64,000 bases of DNA from NCBI GenBank assembly GCA_030849805.1, contig JASANZ010002269.1, positions 87,216 through 151,215 of the forward strand. Reading direction: 5' to 3'. Source of the stretch: Sergeia podlipaevii (Eukaryota; Euglenozoa; Kinetoplastea; Trypanosomatida; Trypanosomatidae). Below the pieces are notes generated by a model that was not told the DNA's origin, did not search any database, and worked only from the letters and a program-made list of their open reading frames with translations. The position numbers and the translations under genes were made by a program. Below, in pieces: positions 28,068 to 40,153 of the stretch. Positions within the stretch are counted from its first letter, which is position 1, and each line of letters starts with the position of its first letter.

Positions 28068-31000
28068 ATGAGTGCACAAGCTTCTTCACCGGACCTCAAG
28101 TCCAAAAAGCGTGTGGCAGCAGCGCTCCATAATACCACCGAGGTCGCTCTCTTACGCACGCACTATTACAAATGGCTCGACTTTATAAAGCGAAGACGAC
28201 TTCACACACATCTGCAGCGGTGCTCAGTGAGCCTCAAGCACAACAATATGCGGCGTAGCTACTCTCGCGTGTTTATGCAATGGCTCTCGTGCACGCAGCG
28301 AAACGCTTCTCAGCAGGCACGAGAGGGCATAGTACTACGCAAGGACGTGCCGCTTCGCACGAAAAGTGACACGATAGCGGTGGTACATCGCTACTTTCGT
28401 AAGTGGCGCTTGCACTTGCGGTATCGCAAACAGCGCACTATTGCCAACGTCGGCGCGCTCGAGAGAGCCAACACGCATCGTGTGAGACAAGGTGCATTTC
28501 ACACGTGGCGCACTCACCTACTTACCAAGAAAGTAGAGGAACTGTCTAAAATAAACGCTAGAGAAGAGGAAGTGCAGGAGCTGCGTGGTGCAGCACTACG
28601 AGCCATTGAGGCCTTTGGAGGCTCGAACAAGCCACGAGATGCCATCCTTGCAGAAACGAAAGAGGATACCCCTGAGAGACTAGCAGGAAACACAAAACTT
28701 ATCGGAGACGAACTCCGCAACTTGAGTGAGGATATGGTGGTGGTGCTTGTCCTGACATCAATGTGGTCTAGCGAAGGCGCGGATGAGCACGTCAGTGACA
28801 TTTTAGAGAAGATGTGGGAGCGCATGAACGCCTCTGAGAAGCAGGCAGCCGAGGCGATGGAGGCAGTGGAGATGACGGACTGCGTGATGAAGGCCGCCCT
28901 TCAGGCACTGGAAGGTCTCTGCGTAGCCGCAACCTCTCTTAGTGGAAGTGGTGGTGCTCCTTGTGCGCCTGTTTCTTCTTCCTCGGCATTCTCTGCGAAG
29001 CATGAGGATGATAAGATGGAAGCAGCGCGCGCTCGAGCGCTAAAGGCGGTCCAGGAAAGTGGCAATGACACCCCACTTCGTCTTCTAGATCAGTGTGCAG
29101 AGGTGAAGGAGCTGCTACCGCGTATTCGACAGAAGGAAACCGAGTTGCTGCGTAGTGCCGCGGCCTTTGGCGTAGTAGCGCTGGGTGGAACGAAAGGTCT
29201 TCAAGCAGTTGAAGCGAATGCGGCAATTCCAGATGATACGGCAGAAGAAACAGCTGCAAAAGGAGCTAATATTGCGGAAATGTTAATTGACTTGTGTAAA
29301 GCTGTGGAGCCGGTGGCTGTGCCCTGTGCTTTGGAGAAAAGTAGGCATGACGGTTGGGGCGAGGATTTCATTCCACCACTGGTTGAGCGGCTCACAGCAC
29401 TGCAAAGACAGTCTGAGACGCTTGAAAACGAAAATGCCCGCATGCAACAGCAACTGCAAGACCGCGACGCAGCTATAAAGGAACTCCAGGTGCAAGGAGA
29501 GAAACTGCAGAAGGATTTAAATCAACTGGAGGAGCGGCGAGCAGCAGAGAAGCACAATTTAGAAATGGACGTGGCGGCGCTGGATAAGAGTAACAAGGAC
29601 CTTCAGCAAGAAGTGTGGGATGCGGAGGCGCGACAGCGCGCGCAGGAGGAGGCACTTGCAAGACACATGCAAGACTCCCTGTTGAAGGTGGACAAACTTG
29701 AGAAACAAATTGCCGAGGAGCGGGCTCACCAGGCTGAAGCCATCGCACGCATCATGAAGGCACTTGATCAGTTGCGTGAGGCCGCGCGCGCCACCGCTGC
29801 AAAGCTTTGTGGTGCGCAGACGTTGAACCTCAAGTCTAGCTTGAACTTAGGCTCACCGGTCCCCTTCTCTGAAGCTGAGGGAGAAGGGGGAGTGGAAGCA
29901 AAGGGTTCTGTCGACCCTCAGTTCGTCCTTTTGAGCACAAGTGATGCCACTCCCTCCTCCTCCTCCTGTCCACTGCTCACAGAGCGGGAAGAAATGGCGG
30001 AAGCACTACAAAGGGCACAGGAGTTCCTCGCTGCCGCTCTCAAGGGGGTAGATCTTGATAAGATACCTGTGCTGGAGGCAATCGACGCGATGAAGGCGGA
30101 GGCACGCACTATGGTGAAGGAGAATGACACCCTGCATGAGCATATCAAGAACATGAGTGTACTGAATGAAGCCCTGCATGACGTACTGGGAACCGTTTTA
30201 GTCATGTTGCAGACTCCCAGTGCAGTGGACGAGGCTGCCGTGGCTGAGGTTGCAGCCAAGGCCCAGAGTCTGTCTGAGCACGGCCGCGCTACCCCCTTGA
30301 ATGTGCTCACAGCTGTCAATACCCTTCGCTTGCAAAGCGTGGAGAGCTCCTCGCAGCTATCTGACGGTGTATTGCAAGCGGACCAGACGCCACTGTCGTC
30401 TGCAGAGCTTCTCAAGTTGTATACCGACCTTTTCTCCAAGACAACGACGCAGCTGCATGAACGCACAGCGGACAGCTCACGCTACCAAGCCCTTAGTGTT
30501 TTCCTGCGAGACATCATCCGCGATAGTATTGCAAGGCTAAGATTGGTGACCTCCTGCCACTCCCCCTCCGTTGGGAGCACTCCGCTATCTTCTCGGGCCT
30601 CGCTCACACTAGCATGTCATCCGCCACCACTGCTGCGAGGCGAAGACCCTTCCCTTTACGTGGAGTACATCCTGAAACTCGAGAACAGCCCAGCTGAAAG
30701 CAAGCGTGCTGTTCAAGACCACCTTAGCCACGACTCTGCCCTAGAAAGCCACGATGAGGCTTCAGCGCCCTCAACGTGGGAAGTGGTTGCTGAGTACCAC
30801 GACCGTCTCGCGCTTCTTATGGAGGTGCTTGCGCAGTACGACGAGGCGCTCTGTGAAGAGAAGGATCACACGGATCAGATCACCACTGAGAACGCACAAC
30901 TGCGAATGGACAGCAAGAACGCCTTGGCGGTGCTACAGGGGTGGTGTGGTACAGTATCAGGAGGAGGGAGAGGCAAAACGCCAGCTGCGAAGGAAGTACT

Positions 31001-33623
31001 GAATCCTACTCAACCCCCATCTGTGGCCAGCGGAGACGACGAGGCGGATGGGGGAGATCTCCTGCCGCTTGTGGAGGAAGTCCGCCGCACCCTTGCGGGG
31101 ATCAAGAACGTGGCCGAGGAGAGCGTCAACCCGTTGGCGAGTACAGGGGCCAGCACTGTATCGCAGCCAGATAGTGGCCTCGACTCTACTCTGACGGCGT
31201 CCTCTAAGATACACATTACCGACCTTCCGACGCTGCTAACCACTGTAGAGACAATGGCGAGGAAGTTGCAAGAGTTCCGAGGGAGCGTGGCCGATGGCAT
31301 TACTGCGCTTGGCGGGCAGCGGATAGATCCTAAAGTAGTAGGTGGAGTCGTTGCTGCTGGTGGTGCAGAGGATGGCACACCGGCGGCGGTGGCGGTGGTG
31401 GACGTTGATACAGCAATTGGCAGGCACCTTTCATCCATGTGTCAAGAGGTGGGGGATTCTATTCAGGAGGTGAAGAGGATGCTTGGCATTGAGGATGAAG
31501 AGCCGCGCCCGACCGCTGCTGATGCGGCTGCAGCAACGACGGCACCGAAGTCGGTGACGCTTCGCAGCATATTGCCTGCTATCAAGTTTAAGATTACCGA
31601 GCTGGAGGAGATGCGGCATGAGTCAGAGAGGCTGCTCAAAGGCCTGGATCACGCCTTTAACGACGATGCCGACTCCCTCAACAGCTCCTGCGCCTCTATC
31701 TTTACAATTGGACGCACTCTGAAGCCGAAGAAGAAGCCTTTTCCCGCCCTCGAGTCGAACCCGGGGAGCGAGATGATGTCCCTCTCTCACTCCGGCATAC
31801 TTAACAAGAAACCGCGCCGTGAAGTGTTGACGACGACGCAAGGTCCTGTTTCAGTGGAAGCGCGCATGCGGGCTCTTCGCGCTAGTGCCCGCGGCAAGCT
31901 CGATGAAGTGCACGATCTTCGGCAGACGTGTCGGCTTGCGATCAACGTGATAGAAGGCACCTTTGTAAAAGGCGCTAAACCCCCGGCGTACGGCGAAGCG
32001 CTTGTACCACTTCTCATTACTCAGATTGAAGAAATCAAGCAAGCACTTCCCGAGGCTGAGGCTGCCCTAGCGGCATTCTCTTTTGATCCAAACGACAAGA
32101 ACTCCACAAGCGGCAATGCGACGACACCACCAAGCGCTATCACGGTTGGCACACGCCTCGCCACTCTCGCCAAAGCCTTGCAGTCTCTTGTGATCGAGCG
32201 CGATAGCCTGCAAGAGGCCCTGGATGGAAAAGCACGGCAGAGCAATATGATTTTGGAAAACTTGAATACCACTACTGCCACCCTCAACAGCCGTATTGAT
32301 GGCCACCGTGCAGAAATTGAGAAGTTGACGGAGAAGTGTAGGGAGGTCGGCAAGCAACTCGCAGAGGAGCAGGAGACAGTGGCGCGGCTACAGTTCCAGC
32401 GGGAGCAGATGGCAGCTGAGAAGAAGGAAACTGAAGCGGCACTGGTGCAGGCGCGCACACGGGCAGATGGGATGGAGGCGAGGTTCATCACTTCTGTGAA
32501 TGAAAAGAAGCAGCTGGAAGGCATGGCAGAGCAACTGGGTCGGGAAATCAACGTGATGGCCACCTCGCTTGCAAGAGCTCTTGTCGCGCTCCCCGGTTGC
32601 ATAGAGACCACCACCACCACCATCAATACCTCCTCCTCTGCAGTGCCAAAGTTACAGCGCGGCCGCAGCGTAGGAGGAGAAGGCCAGCCGACTAAGGCGC
32701 CACAGAGCCGATCAGAAGAAGGAGAGAAAGGAGCACAGAGGGGGAGGGCAACCGAAGGAGAGGTGAAAAATGCGTTGATTGCGCAACTTCATGCTGATCT
32801 TAAGGGGGAAGCGCTGGCAACACTAGTAACGGAAAGAGTTGCACAAGGCCGTGCCCTGGTACGTCGTTCCTGGGCTGATCAGCAGCACCTTCTCTCCAGC
32901 CTCCGCGCTGATCTTGAAGCACTGAAGGACTATGTGCGTAATGCCTACGTGACAGAGATGGAGCCTATCTGTCGCGCTGTGCTACTCGAGGTCTGTGGTG
33001 AAGATACTGAGAACCTGCGCGTGGAGAATGAATTCTTGCGCACCCGCGCGCTGCAGCGAGAGGCATTCGCACGTGACAACAAGGCACTTCAACGCTCTCT
33101 CGAGGTGGCCACAGCGCAGGTAGAGGCGATGGACGAAGAGAACATTGCACTGCGTCGCTCGCTCGCGGAAATGCAGGTTGCGCAGACTCTTGAGCGGACA
33201 GCACCAGAACTAGGGAATAACGATGCTGCATCCGCGCGCTGCAAGGCTGCGGAGGCTGCGCTGGCGAAGGTGGAGCGCCGCATGATCCAGAGAGCCACCG
33301 CACTCACTACAGAAGCCATTGTATCTATTTCTGGCGAGGAGCTCACGCGTGTGTTTGGTGTCACAGCGGAGCACACGCTTGAGCTATACTCCCGTGTGCG
33401 CCAGTCTGTGGAGGAACTGTGCCGCGCGTACAACACTCTCAGTAGCGAGACGACAAGAAGTGTTGTGGCGCCTCCGCCGACGACCTCTCAGAGGCGGTTT
33501 GCTACTTCGCTGGATACTCAAATGCAGGAGCTGCGGCGCATGGTTGATGAAGCCGATAAGCTTTGGCAGTGCATTCCCCCTCTTCTCCGTGCTCCGTACA
33601 GCGCACGCTCTCTTGCCGTCTGA
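28068..33623 (+). CDS. Giant coiled-coil protein with SFI1-like N-terminal repeats (1851 aa)
   Basis: The N-terminal ~155 residues carry four basic helical repeats, each with an aromatic three residues before a Trp: Y33-W36, F69-W72, F110-W113 and F144-W147, spaced 34-41 residues (for example HRYFRKWRLHLRYRKQ). This is the pattern of SFI1 repeats, which bind centrin at centrosomes and basal bodies. From ~155 to the end it is mostly long heptad-rich coiled coil (dense around 440-570, 1370-1500 and 1570-1780) interrupted by Ser/Ala/Gly-rich hinges. No membrane or enzyme motifs are visible. A role at the basal body, flagellar root or another centrin-bearing structure is inferred, not shown. The start lies 39 nt after a good acceptor. 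Family identity beyond these modules is unknown. Confidence 0.87.
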   Translation: MSAQASSPDLKSKKRVAAALHNTTEVALLRTHYYKWLDFIKRRRLHTHLQRCSVSLKHNNMRRSYSRVFMQWLSCTQRNASQQAREGIVLRKDVPLRTKSDTIAVVHRYFRKWRLHLRYRKQRTIANVGALERANTHRVRQGAFHTWRTHLLTKKVEELSKINAREEEVQELRGAALRAIEAFGGSNKPRDAILAETKEDTPERLAGNTKLIGDELRNLSEDMVVVLVLTSMWSSEGADEHVSDILEKMWERMNASEKQAAEAMEAVEMTDCVMKAALQALEGLCVAATSLSGSGGAPCAPVSSSSAFSAKHEDDKMEAARARALKAVQESGNDTPLRLLDQCAEVKELLPRIRQKETELLRSAAAFGVVALGGTKGLQAVEANAAIPDDTAEETAAKGANIAEMLIDLCKAVEPVAVPCALEKSRHDGWGEDFIPPLVERLTALQRQSETLENENARMQQQLQDRDAAIKELQVQGEKLQKDLNQLEERRAAEKHNLEMDVAALDKSNKDLQQEVWDAEARQRAQEEALARHMQDSLLKVDKLEKQIAEERAHQAEAIARIMKALDQLREAARATAAKLCGAQTLNLKSSLNLGSPVPFSEAEGEGGVEAKGSVDPQFVLLSTSDATPSSSSCPLLTEREEMAEALQRAQEFLAAALKGVDLDKIPVLEAIDAMKAEARTMVKENDTLHEHIKNMSVLNEALHDVLGTVLVMLQTPSAVDEAAVAEVAAKAQSLSEHGRATPLNVLTAVNTLRLQSVESSSQLSDGVLQADQTPLSSAELLKLYTDLFSKTTTQLHERTADSSRYQALSVFLRDIIRDSIARLRLVTSCHSPSVGSTPLSSRASLTLACHPPPLLRGEDPSLYVEYILKLENSPAESKRAVQDHLSHDSALESHDEASAPSTWEVVAEYHDRLALLMEVLAQYDEALCEEKDHTDQITTENAQLRMDSKNALAVLQGWCGTVSGGGRGKTPAAKEVLNPTQPPSVASGDDEADGGDLLPLVEEVRRTLAGIKNVAEESVNPLASTGASTVSQPDSGLDSTLTASSKIHITDLPTLLTTVETMARKLQEFRGSVADGITALGGQRIDPKVVGGVVAAGGAEDGTPAAVAVVDVDTAIGRHLSSMCQEVGDSIQEVKRMLGIEDEEPRPTAADAAAATTAPKSVTLRSILPAIKFKITELEEMRHESERLLKGLDHAFNDDADSLNSSCASIFTIGRTLKPKKKPFPALESNPGSEMMSLSHSGILNKKPRREVLTTTQGPVSVEARMRALRASARGKLDEVHDLRQTCRLAINVIEGTFVKGAKPPAYGEALVPLLITQIEEIKQALPEAEAALAAFSFDPNDKNSTSGNATTPPSAITVGTRLATLAKALQSLVIERDSLQEALDGKARQSNMILENLNTTTATLNSRIDGHRAEIEKLTEKCREVGKQLAEEQETVARLQFQREQMAAEKKETEAALVQARTRADGMEARFITSVNEKKQLEGMAEQLGREINVMATSLARALVALPGCIETTTTTINTSSSAVPKLQRGRSVGGEGQPTKAPQSRSEEGEKGAQRGRATEGEVKNALIAQLHADLKGEALATLVTERVAQGRALVRRSWADQQHLLSSLRADLEALKDYVRNAYVTEMEPICRAVLLEVCGEDTENLRVENEFLRTRALQREAFARDNKALQRSLEVATAQVEAMDEENIALRRSLAEMQVAQTLERTAPELGNNDAASARCKAAEAALAKVERRMIQRATALTTEAIVSISGEELTRVFGVTAEHTLELYSRVRQSVEELCRAYNTLSSETTRSVVAPPPTTSQRRFATSLDTQMQELRRMVDEADKLWQCIPPLLRAPYSARSLAV

Positions 33624-34432
33624 GCAAATGTTTTTTTTTGTGTGTGTGTGTGTGTTTGTCTGCGTGTCTGCCTGAGTCCTTTCTTCTGGCTTGCTTTCCA
33701 TCTAACCTTTCGAAGAAAGAAGGATAACTTTGTCTGTATCAGTTCAACATATTTGTGTAACAATACTTCTCGATGCCCCTTTTGAGTGGAGGCAATATTC
33801 TTTTTCTTGCTCTAAAGAAGAGGAGCTTTGAGTGCTTTGACCTTGGCTATCTTAGCATTTATCTCCATTATGGTTTCTTCTTTGGTTAATATATTTTTTT
33901 TTTACGTTGTTGATTCAATCTATATATCTCGTACGTTATTGTGCGTGTATGTGCATGTGTGTGTGTGTGTGTGTGTGTGTGTTCGCAGCTAGTGGCACCA
34001 GTGGGTTATTTTTTTTCAATCGTATATCTGTATATTTACTATTACTATTACCGTATTTTTTTTTCTCTCTCTCAAGGTATCGTGTTTATCAAAATATCAT
34101 TTAAATCTTCTAGAGTATTATGGTGCATATTTGCATTTTATTTATATAGTTATATCCTATATTGTTACGATGGTATATGTATGGTTTCTTCTTCTTCTTT
34201 TTTCACTATTCCTTGCTCTGTTCTACCCACTTTTGTCTGTCCGCTTTTTTTTTTTTTTTGAAAAGGAAACGTGCACAACATTTAGCATCTTCAACGGAAA
34301 AAAGGCATCTGTACAACGTCATCACATTTTTTTTAAAGTGAGGAAGGTCATTGTGTCTTTCATCCATTGAGGCATCTTTTTTTTCTTCTCTTTATTTATA
34401 TTTTGAAAGCGTGCATTTTGTATTAGGCACTC
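33624..34432. other. T-rich spacer with (GT)n
   Basis: No gene seen. (GT)n tracts lie at about 33640-33656 and 33956-33982. The tract from 34377 to 34404 with an AG at 34408-34409 is the likely acceptor of the ligase gene, giving a 23-nt leader. Confidence 0.7.
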
Positions 34433-37400
34433 ATGAATGAAGGCAATACTGCGCTATCAAAAGACTTTGCATCTCCCTTCCAAACTTGGAAGGGCACTGT
34501 GGGTGATGGCAGCACTACTCATAGCACGAGTCTCGTCGATGCTCCAAGAGCCTTGCAATTGATTTCACAACAAGAACAACAACAACAACAACACTCTGGG
34601 CCGACACCATTGCAGTACCCGTTCATGCGCATATGTCAACTCTTTGAAAAAATACTGATCTCTGTGAGCAAGGCGCAGCAGTATGCGTATCTGGATATCT
34701 TTTGGAAAAGTCTACCGCGTGACTGTTCCTTCTTCCCATACATGCGCCTGCTCATCCCCCAGCTTGACAACGTGCGGCCAATGTTCCAGCTCAAGGAAAG
34801 TAAACTGGCGAAGCTCTACGTGGAGATTATGGGACTCTCTGGTCGCAGTCAAGACGCACAGCGCCTCTTACACTGGAAGGATCCCTCCAAGAGCGTTATT
34901 GAGACCACGTGCTTCAGTGATGTGATATACGTCATCCTCCAGCACAAGGGAGGGTTTAATCGTTTTGGGCAACGCTCTGCTGTCACTTCCAAACGAGAGC
35001 GTGTTGATGGGAACGCTAGCAGTAGCGACAATATCAGCAACAATGATAGCAGCGCTTCAGGCTTTCTTTCCGTGGACGGGGTCAACACTGCGCTTGACCG
35101 GCTCGCAGAGGCGCCGAGCACGGCAGTTCGCAAGGCCATTCTTCTTGATCTCCTCCGTCGCACCACAGCCCTTGAACAAAAGTGGCTACTGCGCATTATT
35201 CTTAAAGACATGAAGTTCCGCATGACGCACCAGTCCATTCTTTTCGCCTTTCACCCAAACGCACTGGACATGCACAACAGCACGTGTGACCTGCAATATG
35301 TCTGTGATACCTGTCTAGCCGAGATGAACACCCCAGTACCAGGGTCGGTGGCGAGTGGTATTTTTCTGTTCCAGCCACTGCGTCCTATGCTTGCAAGTCC
35401 AGTCTCGGCGCGGCGCCTTGAGCAGCTCCTTGCGTGTGATAAGATTATGTTAGAGCCCAAGTACGACGGAGAGCGAGTCATGATTCACGTGGACGCAGAG
35501 AAGGTGATGTACTGGACTAGGAACGCGAAGAACTTCTCTTCCTTGTACGGCCCTAAGTTTGATGACATGGTGCGGAAAGCATTTGCTGTGGGCAAACGCT
35601 GTGATATTCCAGGGTGGACGGAGCACCATCGCTCGTCCACTTTATCACAAGTCACGATGGATAATATCATTATTGATGGAGAGTTACTTGTGTTCGATGG
35701 CGCGGCGAATTGTTTTGTGGGATTTGGTATGAACAGGGCCTTCGCCACCGCTGGCGAGGCCTCCCTCAGCGGGGGCGGCGATGTGGATGGCGTGCAACGT
35801 TGGTTCAGCTTTATCGCATTTGATATTGTGCTATTGAATGGGAAGTCGCTCATGCACTTACCGCTCGTGACGCGCCGAGCCCTCATGAAGCGCGTCTTCA
35901 CAGAAGAGAAGAACCACTTTGAGATTGTGCGTTCTGAACAAGTCCGCACAACGGCAGAGATCCTCTCAGGACTTGAGCAGGCCATCGCAGATAAGAAAGA
36001 AGGCATTATTCTCAAAATGGGTGACAGTCCGTACGTGCCAGCGGAGCGAAAGCAACGCTGGGTGAAGATCAAGACAGACCACATCGCCGGTCTCGCTGAC
36101 GCGGTGGACCTTGTTGTGGTGGGTGGATACTATGGCACCAAATTCGGCCAGCGACATATCTCTCACTTCTTGCTCGCTGCGTGGGTCAATGGGTCGTCAG
36201 CAACGCCAACGGATGCGGAGGCATTGTTTCATACCGTCTGTAAAGTTGGTAACGGGTACACGAGTGAAGAGTTGAACCTCATCAACACGAATCTGCAGCC
36301 ACATTGGGAGTCTATGCCGACGCGGCAGACGATTCCTGCATGGCTCGATGGGTGGAAGCCTCTTGGAAGCGACTTGACCCCTGACGTTTACGTACACCCG
36401 CGTAACTCCCTTGTACTCGAAGTGTTTGGGTACTCGTTCACAGAGACGAACAACTATCGTGTTGGGTACACAATCCGCTTTCCCCGCATGTTGCATATTC
36501 GCTGGGATAAGTCACTTCAAGACGCCACGGACCTATGCACGTTGGCGGCCATACGGGACGCCTCACAAGACACGATACGACGCAAAGTGGCGGAAGGGAA
36601 AGATGAGCTGGTGACCGCGATGGCGCTCAAGTGGCGTCGCAGGCGAGATGGAGTAGCTGGGAAGATGGAAGGAGAAGGAGGCACTTTGGTCAAGGAGGAA
36701 GGGGACAACAACGATGGCGCCACCACCGCACTCCCGCCACGCACCATTGCCATGAGCGACGAGCAACTTGCTGTAGCTACTCTCAAGTCTTCCTCGGAAA
36801 TCATTGATCACATTTTTGCCGGATACGAGTTTTGTGTTCTCTTTACAGCCTCTCAGTCCTGCCGTGATCGGGGCAGCGGCAGCAGTGTTGACGCTGCCAC
36901 CGTGACGCGCAGCAAGACCTCCATTGAGCGCTTCCTGCTGCAGCATGGTGCCCAGGTAGTAGCCAATCCAGGCTCTCGTACCTCCCTCCTTCTGGCTTCC
37001 ACCAAAGCGGCCCCCAAGGTGAGGAACTGGGTACGCATGTGCGAGAACAAGCCTGAGCAAGTACTCAAGAAGTATGCTGCCACCGATGTCGCACACTGCG
37101 ACTGGGCTCTGGACTGCGTAGAGGCTAGCACCGTGCTACCCTTGGCACCGAGAAACATGCTCTACAGCAGCCCCTCTCTGTGTGCAAAGTTCGACCTTGT
37201 GCTAGACCCTTTTGAAGACCACTACTATGAGCCTTGCACTTTGGAAAGCCTGCGGCACTCACTGAAGTTGGCGCGTAAGGCGGTGGTGAAACAAGAGGAG
37301 GAAGAGGAAGCAAAGGTGTTTTCTGCGATAAAGAGACGGAGAACAGAACAGGGGAAGACCTCCCGCACCCAAGGCGGTGACGAGGGAGCTTTCCCTGGAG

Positions 37401-38011
37401 ATGGTCACCGCTCACTAGTGGCGGTTTCAACGTCTGTTTACGAAGGCAGGCACCGCCTTGGTCTCCTTCCGAGCACCGCAGTCCCTATTGCAGCCATCTC
37501 ATGGACTCTGTTTGCCCCTCTCACAGGGCCTACTGAAGGTACTGCTACCATCACGCAGCTAGGCAGCATCATTACAACAACAGCAGCAGCAGCACAGTCA
37601 CCATCTCTCTCCAACGCAGTGGCTGCTGCCTGGCTTGCAGCACGCCCGTCTGCCACTATGCTGCGCCTCATCGATGAGGAAAAGCAGGAGGTAGAGAAAC
37701 AACGAAAGCGGCGACAAGGACAACGCGTGGCGAAAGGCGAAGAGAAGAAGATGGATATGATGAAACGGTCTGCCAGTAGTAGTGAAATTGGGGAGGCGAC
37801 GGCACGTGAAACCACACGCAAAGCCGCGTTGCTTCCTTCTGACAGTTTATTTAGGGTACTGCCCAGCCCCCAAGAATGGACGTCCATGCAGTTGGTGACG
37901 ATTGCGAACTACATTGTAGAGGACGGCTGCTGCGTGGTGTCTGAGAGTGCGGAGGCGCGCATTTTCATAGATCCTGAAGGTCGTTCGTGGAGAAGAGATG
38001 TAGGTGCTTGA
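34433..38011 (+). CDS. LIG4: DNA ligase IV (ATP-dependent, BRCT-containing)
   Basis: Seals double-strand breaks in classical non-homologous end joining, normally with XRCC4. The N-terminal DNA-binding domain (~55-290) shows PYMRLLIPQLDNVRP, LAKLYVEIMGL and ALEQKWLLRIILKDMKF, all close to LIG4. The nucleotidyltransferase core has motif I EPKYDGER with catalytic Lys343, motif III IIIDGE (Asp415), motif IV KKEGIILK (Glu523) and motif V WVKIK (Lys545, Lys547). The OB domain has GGYYGTKFGQRHISHFL, YVHPRNSLVLEVF and GYTIRFPRM, as in LIG4 and unlike ligase I or III. The first BRCT begins near IIDHIFAGYEFCVLF (~790). A segment at ~915-950 with DHYYEPCTLESLRHSL aligns with the human XRCC4-interacting region. 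A second, insert-bearing BRCT (~1005-1190) closes the protein. At 1192 aa it is longer than the ~911-aa human enzyme, mainly from charged inserts at ~720-775 and 1080-1150. No frameshift or lost catalytic residue is seen. Confidence 0.95.
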   Translation: MNEGNTALSKDFASPFQTWKGTVGDGSTTHSTSLVDAPRALQLISQQEQQQQQHSGPTPLQYPFMRICQLFEKILISVSKAQQYAYLDIFWKSLPRDCSFFPYMRLLIPQLDNVRPMFQLKESKLAKLYVEIMGLSGRSQDAQRLLHWKDPSKSVIETTCFSDVIYVILQHKGGFNRFGQRSAVTSKRERVDGNASSSDNISNNDSSASGFLSVDGVNTALDRLAEAPSTAVRKAILLDLLRRTTALEQKWLLRIILKDMKFRMTHQSILFAFHPNALDMHNSTCDLQYVCDTCLAEMNTPVPGSVASGIFLFQPLRPMLASPVSARRLEQLLACDKIMLEPKYDGERVMIHVDAEKVMYWTRNAKNFSSLYGPKFDDMVRKAFAVGKRCDIPGWTEHHRSSTLSQVTMDNIIIDGELLVFDGAANCFVGFGMNRAFATAGEASLSGGGDVDGVQRWFSFIAFDIVLLNGKSLMHLPLVTRRALMKRVFTEEKNHFEIVRSEQVRTTAEILSGLEQAIADKKEGIILKMGDSPYVPAERKQRWVKIKTDHIAGLADAVDLVVVGGYYGTKFGQRHISHFLLAAWVNGSSATPTDAEALFHTVCKVGNGYTSEELNLINTNLQPHWESMPTRQTIPAWLDGWKPLGSDLTPDVYVHPRNSLVLEVFGYSFTETNNYRVGYTIRFPRMLHIRWDKSLQDATDLCTLAAIRDASQDTIRRKVAEGKDELVTAMALKWRRRRDGVAGKMEGEGGTLVKEEGDNNDGATTALPPRTIAMSDEQLAVATLKSSSEIIDHIFAGYEFCVLFTASQSCRDRGSGSSVDAATVTRSKTSIERFLLQHGAQVVANPGSRTSLLLASTKAAPKVRNWVRMCENKPEQVLKKYAATDVAHCDWALDCVEASTVLPLAPRNMLYSSPSLCAKFDLVLDPFEDHYYEPCTLESLRHSLKLARKAVVKQEEEEEAKVFSAIKRRRTEQGKTSRTQGGDEGAFPGDGHRSLVAVSTSVYEGRHRLGLLPSTAVPIAAISWTLFAPLTGPTEGTATITQLGSIITTTAAAAQSPSLSNAVAAAWLAARPSATMLRLIDEEKQEVEKQRKRRQGQRVAKGEEKKMDMMKRSASSSEIGEATARETTRKAALLPSDSLFRVLPSPQEWTSMQLVTIANYIVEDGCCVVSESAEARIFIDPEGRSWRRDVGA

Positions 38012-38437: not shown

Positions 38438-40153
38438 ATGGCAAGTCATATGTGTGACCAGTGTGACCTCGGCTGCCATGGCAAGGCCGGTGTTGCGGAT
38501 ATCGAAGACGCCAAGGCACAACAGGGTCAATTCCACTACTCCTCTATCTTCCAGCCCACCGACCCCAAGCACGAGAACTATCAGTACTACACGGTCCCTG
38601 GAAGCGAGAAGTACGTGGAGGAAGTGGAAGTGTTCGGCAAGAAGGTTCTCAAGGTGGACCCCGAGGCACTCACCGTGCTCGCGCACGACGCTTTTGCTGA
38701 CGTGCATCACTTCTTCCGCAAGGAGCAGCTCGAAGGATGGGCTCGCATTTTGAAGGATCCCGAGGCCTCTGAAAACGAGAGATTTGTCGCTGAGACTCTC
38801 TTAAAGAACGCGTGCATTGCCGCTGGCCGCATTCTTCCCACCTGCCAGGACACCGGCACGGCCATCGTGCTTGCTAAGCGCGGTGAACTCTGCTGGACCG
38901 GCGGTGAGGACGAGAAGTATCTCTCGCATGGTATCTGGAAGTGCTATCACAACCACAACCTGCGCTACAGTCAGACCGCCGCACTTGACATGTTCAAGGA
39001 GTGCAACACCGGCGACAATCTTCCCGCTCAGTTGGATATGCTTGCGGTGCCTGGGAATGAATACGAGTTCATGTTCGTCGCCAAGGGCGGCGGTTCTGCC
39101 AACAAGTCGTTCCTTTACCAAGAAACGAAGGCTTTGCTCAACCCCAAGTCACTTCGTGCGTTCATCACCGCCAAGCTGAAGACTCTCGGTACCGCGGCCT
39201 GCCCTCCGTACCACATCGCCCTCGTCATCGGCGGCACCAGCGCGGAGATGACCATGAAAACGGTGAAGTTGACTAGTTGCAGATACTACGACACGCTGCC
39301 AACCACCGGCGACAAGTACGGCCGCGCCTTCCGTGACCTTGAGTGGGAAAAGATTGTGATGGAGATTGCCCAGTCTTCTGGCATCGGCGCTCAGTTTGGT
39401 GGTAAGTACTTTGCCCACCAGATCCGCGTGGTTCGCCTCCCTCGCCACGGTGCTTCTTGCCCAGTTGGTCTTGGTGTGTCGTGCAGTGCGGACCGCCAGA
39501 TCCTCGCCCATATTGATAAGCGCGGTATCCACATTGAGCAACTCGTCAAGGATCCCGCTCAGTACCTTCCCGAGGCGAGCCCTGAGAAGCTCACCACAAA
39601 CTCGGTCGCCATTGACCTCAACCAACCAATGGATGAGGTGCGCCAGGTGCTCAGCAAGTACCCCGTTGGCACTCGCGTTATGCTCACCGGCACCCTCATC
39701 GTCGCTCGTGATATCGCGCATGCAAAGATCTTTGAGGACCTCAACAACGGTGTGCCCCTGCCTGACTATGTAAAGAACCACCCCATCTACTACGCTGGTC
39801 CCGCCAAGAAGCCCACGGGTATGGCTTCCGGCTCCTTCGGCCCCACCACCGCCGGCCGCATGGACAGCTACGTCGACCCCTTCATGGCTGCTGGCGGCAG
39901 TTTTGTTACCCTTGCCAAGGGCAACCGCAGCAAGGTGGTCACGGACGCATGCAAGAAGCATGGCGGCTTCTACCTGGGCAGCATCGGTGGTCCGGCCGCC
40001 ATCCTGGCGCAGAACAACATCACCAAGGTGGAGTGCCTGGCCTTCCCTGAGTTTGGTATGGAGGCGGTCTGGAAGATTGAGGTCGTTGATTTCCCGGCCT
40101 TTATAATCGTGGACGACAAGGGCGACGACTTCTACGCTAAACTGCTTGCGTAG
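38438..40153 (+). CDS. Fumarate hydratase, class I (iron-sulfur), cytosolic type
   Basis: Interconverts fumarate and malate. In kinetoplastids the class I enzyme occurs as mitochondrial and cytosolic isoforms. This one (571 aa) lacks a presequence and starts [18 protein letters not shown], like the cytosolic Leishmania form. The three cysteines expected to hold the 4Fe-4S cluster are Cys136 ([10 protein letters not shown]), Cys255 ([10 protein letters not shown]) and Cys349 (GVSCSADRQ). From memory these align, with an offset of 3, with Cys133, Cys252 and Cys346 of L. major FH. The signatures [13 protein letters not shown] and [14 protein letters not shown] are intact. Codon use is C-ending and uniform, more biased than in neighbouring genes, as expected for an abundant enzyme. 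The minus-strand open frame at 39149-40183 is a shadow created by this bias. It is a homodimeric enzyme, unrelated to the class II fumarase of mammals. Confidence 0.97.

What the first reader, a model, noticed from the sequence alone, without database searches (positions are those of the whole stretch)
34433..38011. Complete DNA ligase IV in a trypanosomatid-type genome
The gene carries LIG4-specific features along its full length: N-terminal domain, catalytic Lys343, motifs III-V, and two BRCT regions. Trypanosoma brucei and Leishmania are generally described as having Ku70/Ku80 but no ligase IV or XRCC4, and as repairing breaks by homologous recombination and microhomology. An intact ligase IV here would mean this lineage kept, or regained, the sealing step of classical end joining. 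No stop, frameshift or missing catalytic residue is seen.
Basis: partly seen in the sequence, partly recalled or inferred. Interest (0 to 1): 0.85.

Follow-up and report, generated by a model that had tools for sequence, protein, structure and literature searches.

The report
DNA ligase IV in a trypanosomatid
A relative of the sleeping-sickness and Leishmania parasites carries an intact gene for DNA ligase IV, an enzyme that seals broken chromosome ends, although published surveys describe this group of parasites as lacking it.

Summary
The frame at 34433-38011 (1192 aa) is a DNA ligase IV, not LIG1 or LIG3: human LIG4 is its best solved relative (E 2e-83, against 7e-33 for LIG3). The assembly has separate LIG1 and LIG3 genes. 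In a 52-row tree it falls in a six-row clade (100/100) with Novymonas esmeraldas, nested in an 18-row clade with Euglena gracilis (100/99), which fits vertical retention better than regain. The genome also encodes Ku70, Ku80 with a DNA-PKcs-binding domain, and an intact 4265-aa DNA-PKcs. XRCC4 and XLF were not found, but those searches had no working control. Published papers state that trypanosomatids lack Lig4; my ten library searches listed no contrary report. That the pathway works is inferred, not shown.

The parts
34433..38011 (+). DNA ligase IV gene (LIG4), 1192 aa, single uninterrupted frame
34375..34426 (+). Candidate trans-splicing acceptor: pyrimidine tract 34375-34393, then AG at 34408-34409 and 34425-34426
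   Evidence: sequence pattern only, no RNA data
34619..35254 (+). N-terminal DNA-binding domain (aa 63-274, DNA_ligase_A_N)
35384..36073 (+). Nucleotidyltransferase domain (aa 318-547, DNA_ligase_A_M)
   Evidence: 1.9e-36
35459..35461 (+). Codon of catalytic Lys343 in motif I (EPKYDGER)
   Evidence: invariant in the 27 rows of A2; motif rows shown for 12 of them
36152..36511 (+). OB-fold domain (aa 574-693, DNA_ligase_A_C)
   Evidence: 3.1e-9
36818..37201 (+). BRCT domain 1 (aa about 796-923)
   Evidence: hhalign 99.9%, 3.1e-33 to other LIG4, together with the next part; PDB BRCT chain 3ii6 0.00095; model pLDDT mostly 77-90 with a weak loop at 811-830; Pfam BRCT under its cut-off
37202..37297 (+). 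Stretch aligned to the XRCC4-binding region of LIG4 (aa 924-955, LDPFEDHYYEPCTLESLRHSLKL...)
   Evidence: aligned to human LIG4; pattern kept in rows P0001-P0012; PF11411 not hit in this protein
37349..38008 (+). Poorly conserved C-terminal tail (aa 973-1192) in the place of BRCT2; no BRCT detectable

Best explanation
The gene is a vertically inherited DNA ligase IV of a trypanosomatid. It most likely performs the final sealing step of classical non-homologous end joining: Ku70/Ku80 bind a double-strand break, Ku80's C-terminal domain brings in DNA-PKcs, and LIG4 self-adenylates on Lys343, moves AMP to the 5' phosphate and seals the strands, probably held by an XRCC4-like partner through the conserved stretch after BRCT1. 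Shown here: gene identity, intact catalytic residues, phylogenetic place, and intact Ku70, Ku80 and DNA-PKcs genes in the same assembly. Inferred: expression, the XRCC4 partner, and actual end joining. LIG4 would then have been present in the ancestor of the LIG4-bearing trypanosomatids and lost afterwards, more than once, in lineages that lack it.
For: PDB by sequence: human LIG4 2.4e-83, LIG3 6.5e-33, best LIG1 6.8e-28. Tree of 52 rows x 541 columns: LIG4 clade (28 rows) 100/99, the 18-row subclade with Euglena gracilis 100/99, the 6-row subclade with Novymonas 100/100. Motifs intact. Model: human LIG4 is the top structural match by Foldseek (2.1e-54; best LIG1 1.6e-32, LIG3 2.6e-32). Ku80 with Ku_PK_bind 5.2e-20, and Ku70. 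DNA-PKcs: 4265 aa without an internal stop; scanned in two pieces, DNA-PKcs_N 4.5e-10, CC3 7.7e-13, CC5 4e-23, PI3/4-kinase 2e-43, FATC 2.2e-6; PDB DNA-PKcs 4e-62 against mTOR 1.5e-36. LIG1 and LIG3 are separate genes. Codon usage like its neighbours.
Confidence: 0.78

Rival explanations
1. The protein is LIG4, but it no longer serves classical end joining: with BRCT2 gone and no XRCC4/XLF seen, it is a backup or specialised ligase (telomeres, kinetoplast DNA, alternative end joining).
For: No detectable BRCT2; XRCC4 and XLF searches empty; Leishmania is reported to keep Ku and a putative DNA-PKcs although its Cas9 breaks have not been seen to be repaired by classical end joining (PMC8377203, passages), so these factors can have other jobs.
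Against: The stretch aligned to the XRCC4-binding region keeps its pattern in rows P0001-P0012; Ku80's DNA-PKcs-binding domain and a whole DNA-PKcs are kept in the same genome; XRCC4-type proteins are often too divergent for such profiles (recalled), so the empty searches weigh little.
Confidence: 0.17
2. LIG4 was regained by lateral transfer from a non-euglenozoan eukaryote.
For: Patchy distribution among named trypanosomatids.
Against: The clade nests with Euglena gracilis and unnamed relatives, apart from animal, plant and fungal LIG4, with starred support; codon usage like its neighbours.
Confidence: 0.02
3. The contig is contamination from another eukaryote.
For: The assembly is unnamed and in 576 contigs.
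Against: Its LIG4 clade includes Novymonas; codon usage is similar to that of LIG1, LIG3, Ku and DNA-PKcs of the same assembly; the assembly's cGAPDH falls in one 18-row clade with all named trypanosomatids used.
Confidence: 0.02
4. It is a divergent LIG1 or LIG3.
For: Shared ligase core domains.
Against: Separate LIG1 and LIG3 genes; the three groups are apart in 100% of 200 bootstrap trees.
Confidence: 0.01

Closest known systems
Human / vertebrate DNA ligase IV
   Same: DBD, nucleotidyltransferase and OB domains, catalytic motifs, BRCT1, and the stretch aligned to the XRCC4-binding region
   Different: About 26% identity to a fish LIG4 (P0030) and 30-33% in structural alignments to human LIG4; longer N- and C-terminal tails; second BRCT not detectable
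'DNA ligase-like protein' of Novymonas esmeraldas (P0006) and P0003 (NCBI, organism cut off in the output, inferred Angomonas deanei)
   Same: Same clade and same domain order
   Different: 42% and 54% identity to the window protein; the source names shown do not call them ligase IV
Euglena gracilis LIG4 (P0016, recognised by the EukProt name EG_transcript, recalled)
   Same: LIG4 clade, BRCT1, stretch aligned to the XRCC4-binding region
   Different: PF11411 (3e-4) and a weak second BRCT signal (0.045) are still seen there
Trypanosoma and Leishmania end-joining set as published
   Same: Ku70 and Ku80; a putative DNA-PKcs is reported for Leishmania, Endotrypanum and Crithidia (PMC8377203, passages)
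   Different: They are reported to lack Lig4 (PMC6635534, sections 6 and 8 read; passages of PMC12578213, PMC4169256, PMC8716037 and PMC8287324)

Membership tests
DNA ligase IV | ATP-dependent ligase core DBD-NTase-OB with intact catalytic motifs | tested here: met
DNA ligase IV | Core groups with LIG4 and not with LIG1 or LIG3 | tested here: met
   support 100/99
DNA ligase IV | C-terminal BRCT1 | tested here: met
   hhalign 99.9%, E 3.1e-33; structural alignment to residue 956; Pfam BRCT itself under its cut-off
DNA ligase IV | XRCC4-interacting region between the BRCTs | tested here: inconclusive
   aligned and pattern kept, but PF11411 is not hit; binding not testable here
DNA ligase IV | Second BRCT domain | tested here: inconclusive
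   not detectable: hhalign 0.1% to animal-type LIG4 tails, against 75.9% for the tails of P0013-P0016, P0018, P0019; models of the tail are of low or middling confidence
Classical NHEJ pathway | Ku70 and Ku80 present | tested here: met
Classical NHEJ pathway | DNA-PKcs present and intact | tested here: met
Classical NHEJ pathway | XRCC4 / XLF present | tested here: inconclusive
   0 matches, controls silent
Classical NHEJ pathway | LIG4-dependent end joining in the cell | not testable with these tools
   needs genetics and break-repair assays

The most novel reading that the evidence does not exclude
A subset of trypanosomatids runs a complete Ku - DNA-PKcs - LIG4 end-joining pathway with a remodelled ligase that kept the XRCC4-binding stretch but lost BRCT2, and LIG4 was lost repeatedly and recently elsewhere (for example in Leishmania after its split from Novymonas). 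Retention may track bacterial endosymbiosis: the one named carrier (Novymonas) and the one I infer (Angomonas) are both symbiont-bearing genera, which would link end joining to the capture of symbiont DNA.
Probability: 0.15. Interest if true: 0.92.

Novelty: new member of a known kind. Interest (0 to 1): 0.78.

Why it matters
Trypanosomatids are the standard example of eukaryotes that kept Ku but lost ligase IV. This is used to explain why Leishmania and trypanosomes repair breaks by microhomology and recombination, and why gene editing in Leishmania often needs donor DNA (passages of PMC6635534 and PMC9241504). A LIG4-bearing trypanosomatid with Ku and DNA-PKcs supplies the missing comparison. 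It makes the questions 'what does Ku do without LIG4' and 'what changes when end joining is lost' testable within one family, and if descent is vertical it moves the loss from the root of the family to several later branches.

Tried and rejected
Naming the organism failed. The assembly's cGAPDH is 83-87% identical to many trypanosomatid and bacterial proteins and is placed only weakly (86/83, with two unnamed sequences). Assembly size (23.39 Mb) fits none of the 21 assemblies tabulated in PMC10441713 (tables read). Rfam rRNA searches of the genome gave no answer.

Symbiont test: a bacterial RNA polymerase alpha family gave 0 matches in the assembly; the control rang in 9 of 14. This does not show that the cells lack a symbiont, since symbiont contigs can be removed from an assembly, as was done for A. 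deanei (PMC8022732).

Spliced-leader exon pattern: 0 matches. Unassembled repeats or a variant leader would both give this, so nothing is concluded.

A second structure model of the tail had mean pLDDT 44 and is not used as evidence about BRCT2. My hhalign control between the tails and BRCT1 of other LIG4s was itself weak (6.7%), so I rely on the direct tail-to-tail comparison.

In the codon test the assembly's cGAPDH gave r 0.53 and one archaeal control 0.42, no lower than the lowest window neighbour (0.42), so that test is supportive only. In the alignment of the XRCC4-binding stretch, P0023, P0026 and P0029 of the 27 rows lack part of it.

Synteny with Leishmania or Angomonas and selection tests were not done: no trypanosomatid DNA outside this genome was at hand.

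Rows dropped: of 51 hits, 27 went into the tree. Left out were P0017 (start of the core missing), P0021, P0025, P0027-P0029, P0031, P0032 (as redundant) and P0037-P0052 (weak, partial or LigD). Of 120 listed LIG3 hits 14 were used; the best-scoring, P0173, was not. Of 80 archaeal loci 8 were used. Alignment A2 has 26 of the 51 hits.

Full report
WHAT IS THERE. The window lies at C570:87216-151215 of an unnamed 23.39-Mb assembly in 576 contigs. At 34433-38011 there is one uninterrupted frame of 1192 aa. Of the 21 ORFs of at least 250 aa in the window, 19 are on the + strand, as expected of a trypanosomatid polycistronic unit. The neighbours that Pfam recognises include a fumarase directly downstream (38438-40153), a prenyltransferase alpha subunit, a diacylglycerol kinase, Gpi1, a protein kinase, a PPR protein, an EF-hand protein and an RsmB/F-type methyltransferase. 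The gene's codon usage correlates with 15 window neighbours at 0.87, within the range of the neighbours themselves (0.42-0.88); LIG1, LIG3, Ku70, Ku80 and DNA-PKcs of the assembly give 0.79-0.84, cGAPDH 0.53, two archaeal genes -0.34 and 0.42.

IDENTITY. By sequence, the closest solved structures are human LIG4 (2.4e-83), far ahead of LIG3 (6.5e-33) and LIG1 (6.8e-28). The assembly has three matches to the ligase N-terminal domain: this gene, a LIG1 (C403; human LIG1 1.8e-170) and a LIG3 (C214, 1285 aa; placed by the tree). In the tree (IQ-TREE, LG+C20, 541 columns, 52 rows) LIG4, LIG3 and LIG1-plus-archaea are three clean groups, each one side of a branch in 100% of 200 bootstrap trees. The only eukaryotic LIG1 in it is the assembly's own, on a long branch. 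The window protein pairs with P0002 (unnamed, 69% over the core; 100/97). Six rows form a clade at 100/100: the window, Novymonas esmeraldas (P0006), P0003 (NCBI, contig of 771,299 bases, which I infer from its naming style and contig size to be Angomonas deanei) and three unnamed proteins (P0002, P0004, P0005). I call these trypanosomatid-type. Eighteen rows, including Euglena gracilis (P0016, recognised by the name EG_transcript), form a clade at 100/99; I call it euglenozoan, although most of its rows are unnamed. The branch that joins the trypanosomatid-type rows to P0007-P0012 (unnamed, bodonid-like by position only) is 87/82. This is the shape expected of vertical descent.

PARTNERS. In the same assembly: Ku80 (C559, 763 aa) with the DNA-PKcs-binding domain Ku_PK_bind (5.2e-20), and Ku70 (C54, 917 aa). 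Ku80 ends in ...EEVLDDTLLDLIS, which resembles the vertebrate DNA-PKcs-binding tail (the vertebrate motif is recalled). DNA-PKcs (C487:29931-42728) is one open frame of 4265 aa with DNA-PKcs_N, CC3, CC5, kinase and FATC domains, scanned in two pieces; its nearest solved relative is DNA-PKcs (4e-62), well ahead of mTOR (1.5e-36). One match to the SNM1-type DRMBL family and family-A DNA polymerase matches at five places (six matches) are also there. XRCC4 and XLF profiles gave nothing, but the 14 control genomes, all prokaryotes, could not ring: undecided.

HOW IT PROBABLY WORKS. From the established mechanism of LIG4 and of DNA-PK (recalled; outlined also in the passages of PMC6635534), Ku70/80, DNA-PKcs and LIG4 recognise, hold and seal a break, given an XRCC4-like scaffold. 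Gene presence and integrity are shown; expression, the scaffold and end joining itself are inferred.

WHAT IS KNOWN. Nenarokova et al. 2019 (PMC6635534; [quoted passage not shown] jaculum lost both Ku genes. A 2021 paper says that ligase IV is absent from trypanosomatid genomes (PMC8716037, passage); the T. [quoted passage not shown] see also passages of PMC12578213 and PMC8287324. A putative DNA-PKcs is reported in Leishmania, Endotrypanum and Crithidia (PMC8377203, passages). The genome papers of Novymonas (PMC8406214) and Angomonas (PMC3616161, PMC8022732) gave no mention of ligase IV to term searches of the main text. My ten library searches listed no paper whose title or abstract start reports LIG4 in a trypanosomatid; I opened 14 papers, most by term search, and left the other listed papers unopened. 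The library holds open-licence papers only, so this is not proof of absence in print.

DISTRIBUTION. In one search (51 hits among the 7989 candidates scored) the only trypanosomatid that the output names is Novymonas; P0003 is inferred. The same database holds named Leishmania, Porcisia, Leptomonas, Lotmaria and Trypanosoma proteins, and none of the 51 hits bears such a name. That supports real absence there, within the limits of a word-based search. No hit bears the name Bodo saltans either, though its LIG3 is in the database (P0185). Novymonas is described as the closest relative of Leishmania (abstract start of PMC8406214), so under vertical descent at least one loss is recent.

SCORE. As an enzyme it is a known kind. 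The surprise is the host: a trypanosomatid with Ku70, Ku80, DNA-PKcs and LIG4 together, against the published generalisation for the family.

Noticed in passing
L004:2999-6856 (G000:C214), + strand: A LIG3-type ligase (1285 aa, BRCT hits under the Pfam cut-off) in the same genome; relatives in Leptomonas pyrrhocoris, L. seymouri and Bodo saltans are named only as putative DNA ligase.
   Followed up: partly
   Followed up: yes
L005 (G000:C559), Ku80 C-terminus: Ku80 keeps the DNA-PKcs-binding domain (PF08785, 5.2e-20) and an acidic LLDL-type tail.
   Followed up: partly
G000, whole assembly: Only a cytosolic-type GAPDH and one divergent GAPDH-like frame matched (2 matches), and the canonical spliced-leader exon pattern gave 0 hits. 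Perhaps unassembled repeats; not checked.
   Followed up: no
one search hit list: No hit is named Bodo saltans, the usual free-living reference, while six unnamed proteins (P0007-P0012) fall next to the trypanosomatid clade.
   Followed up: no
window 28068-33623: A 1851-aa frame directly upstream of LIG4 with no Pfam match at E <= 0.001.
   Followed up: no
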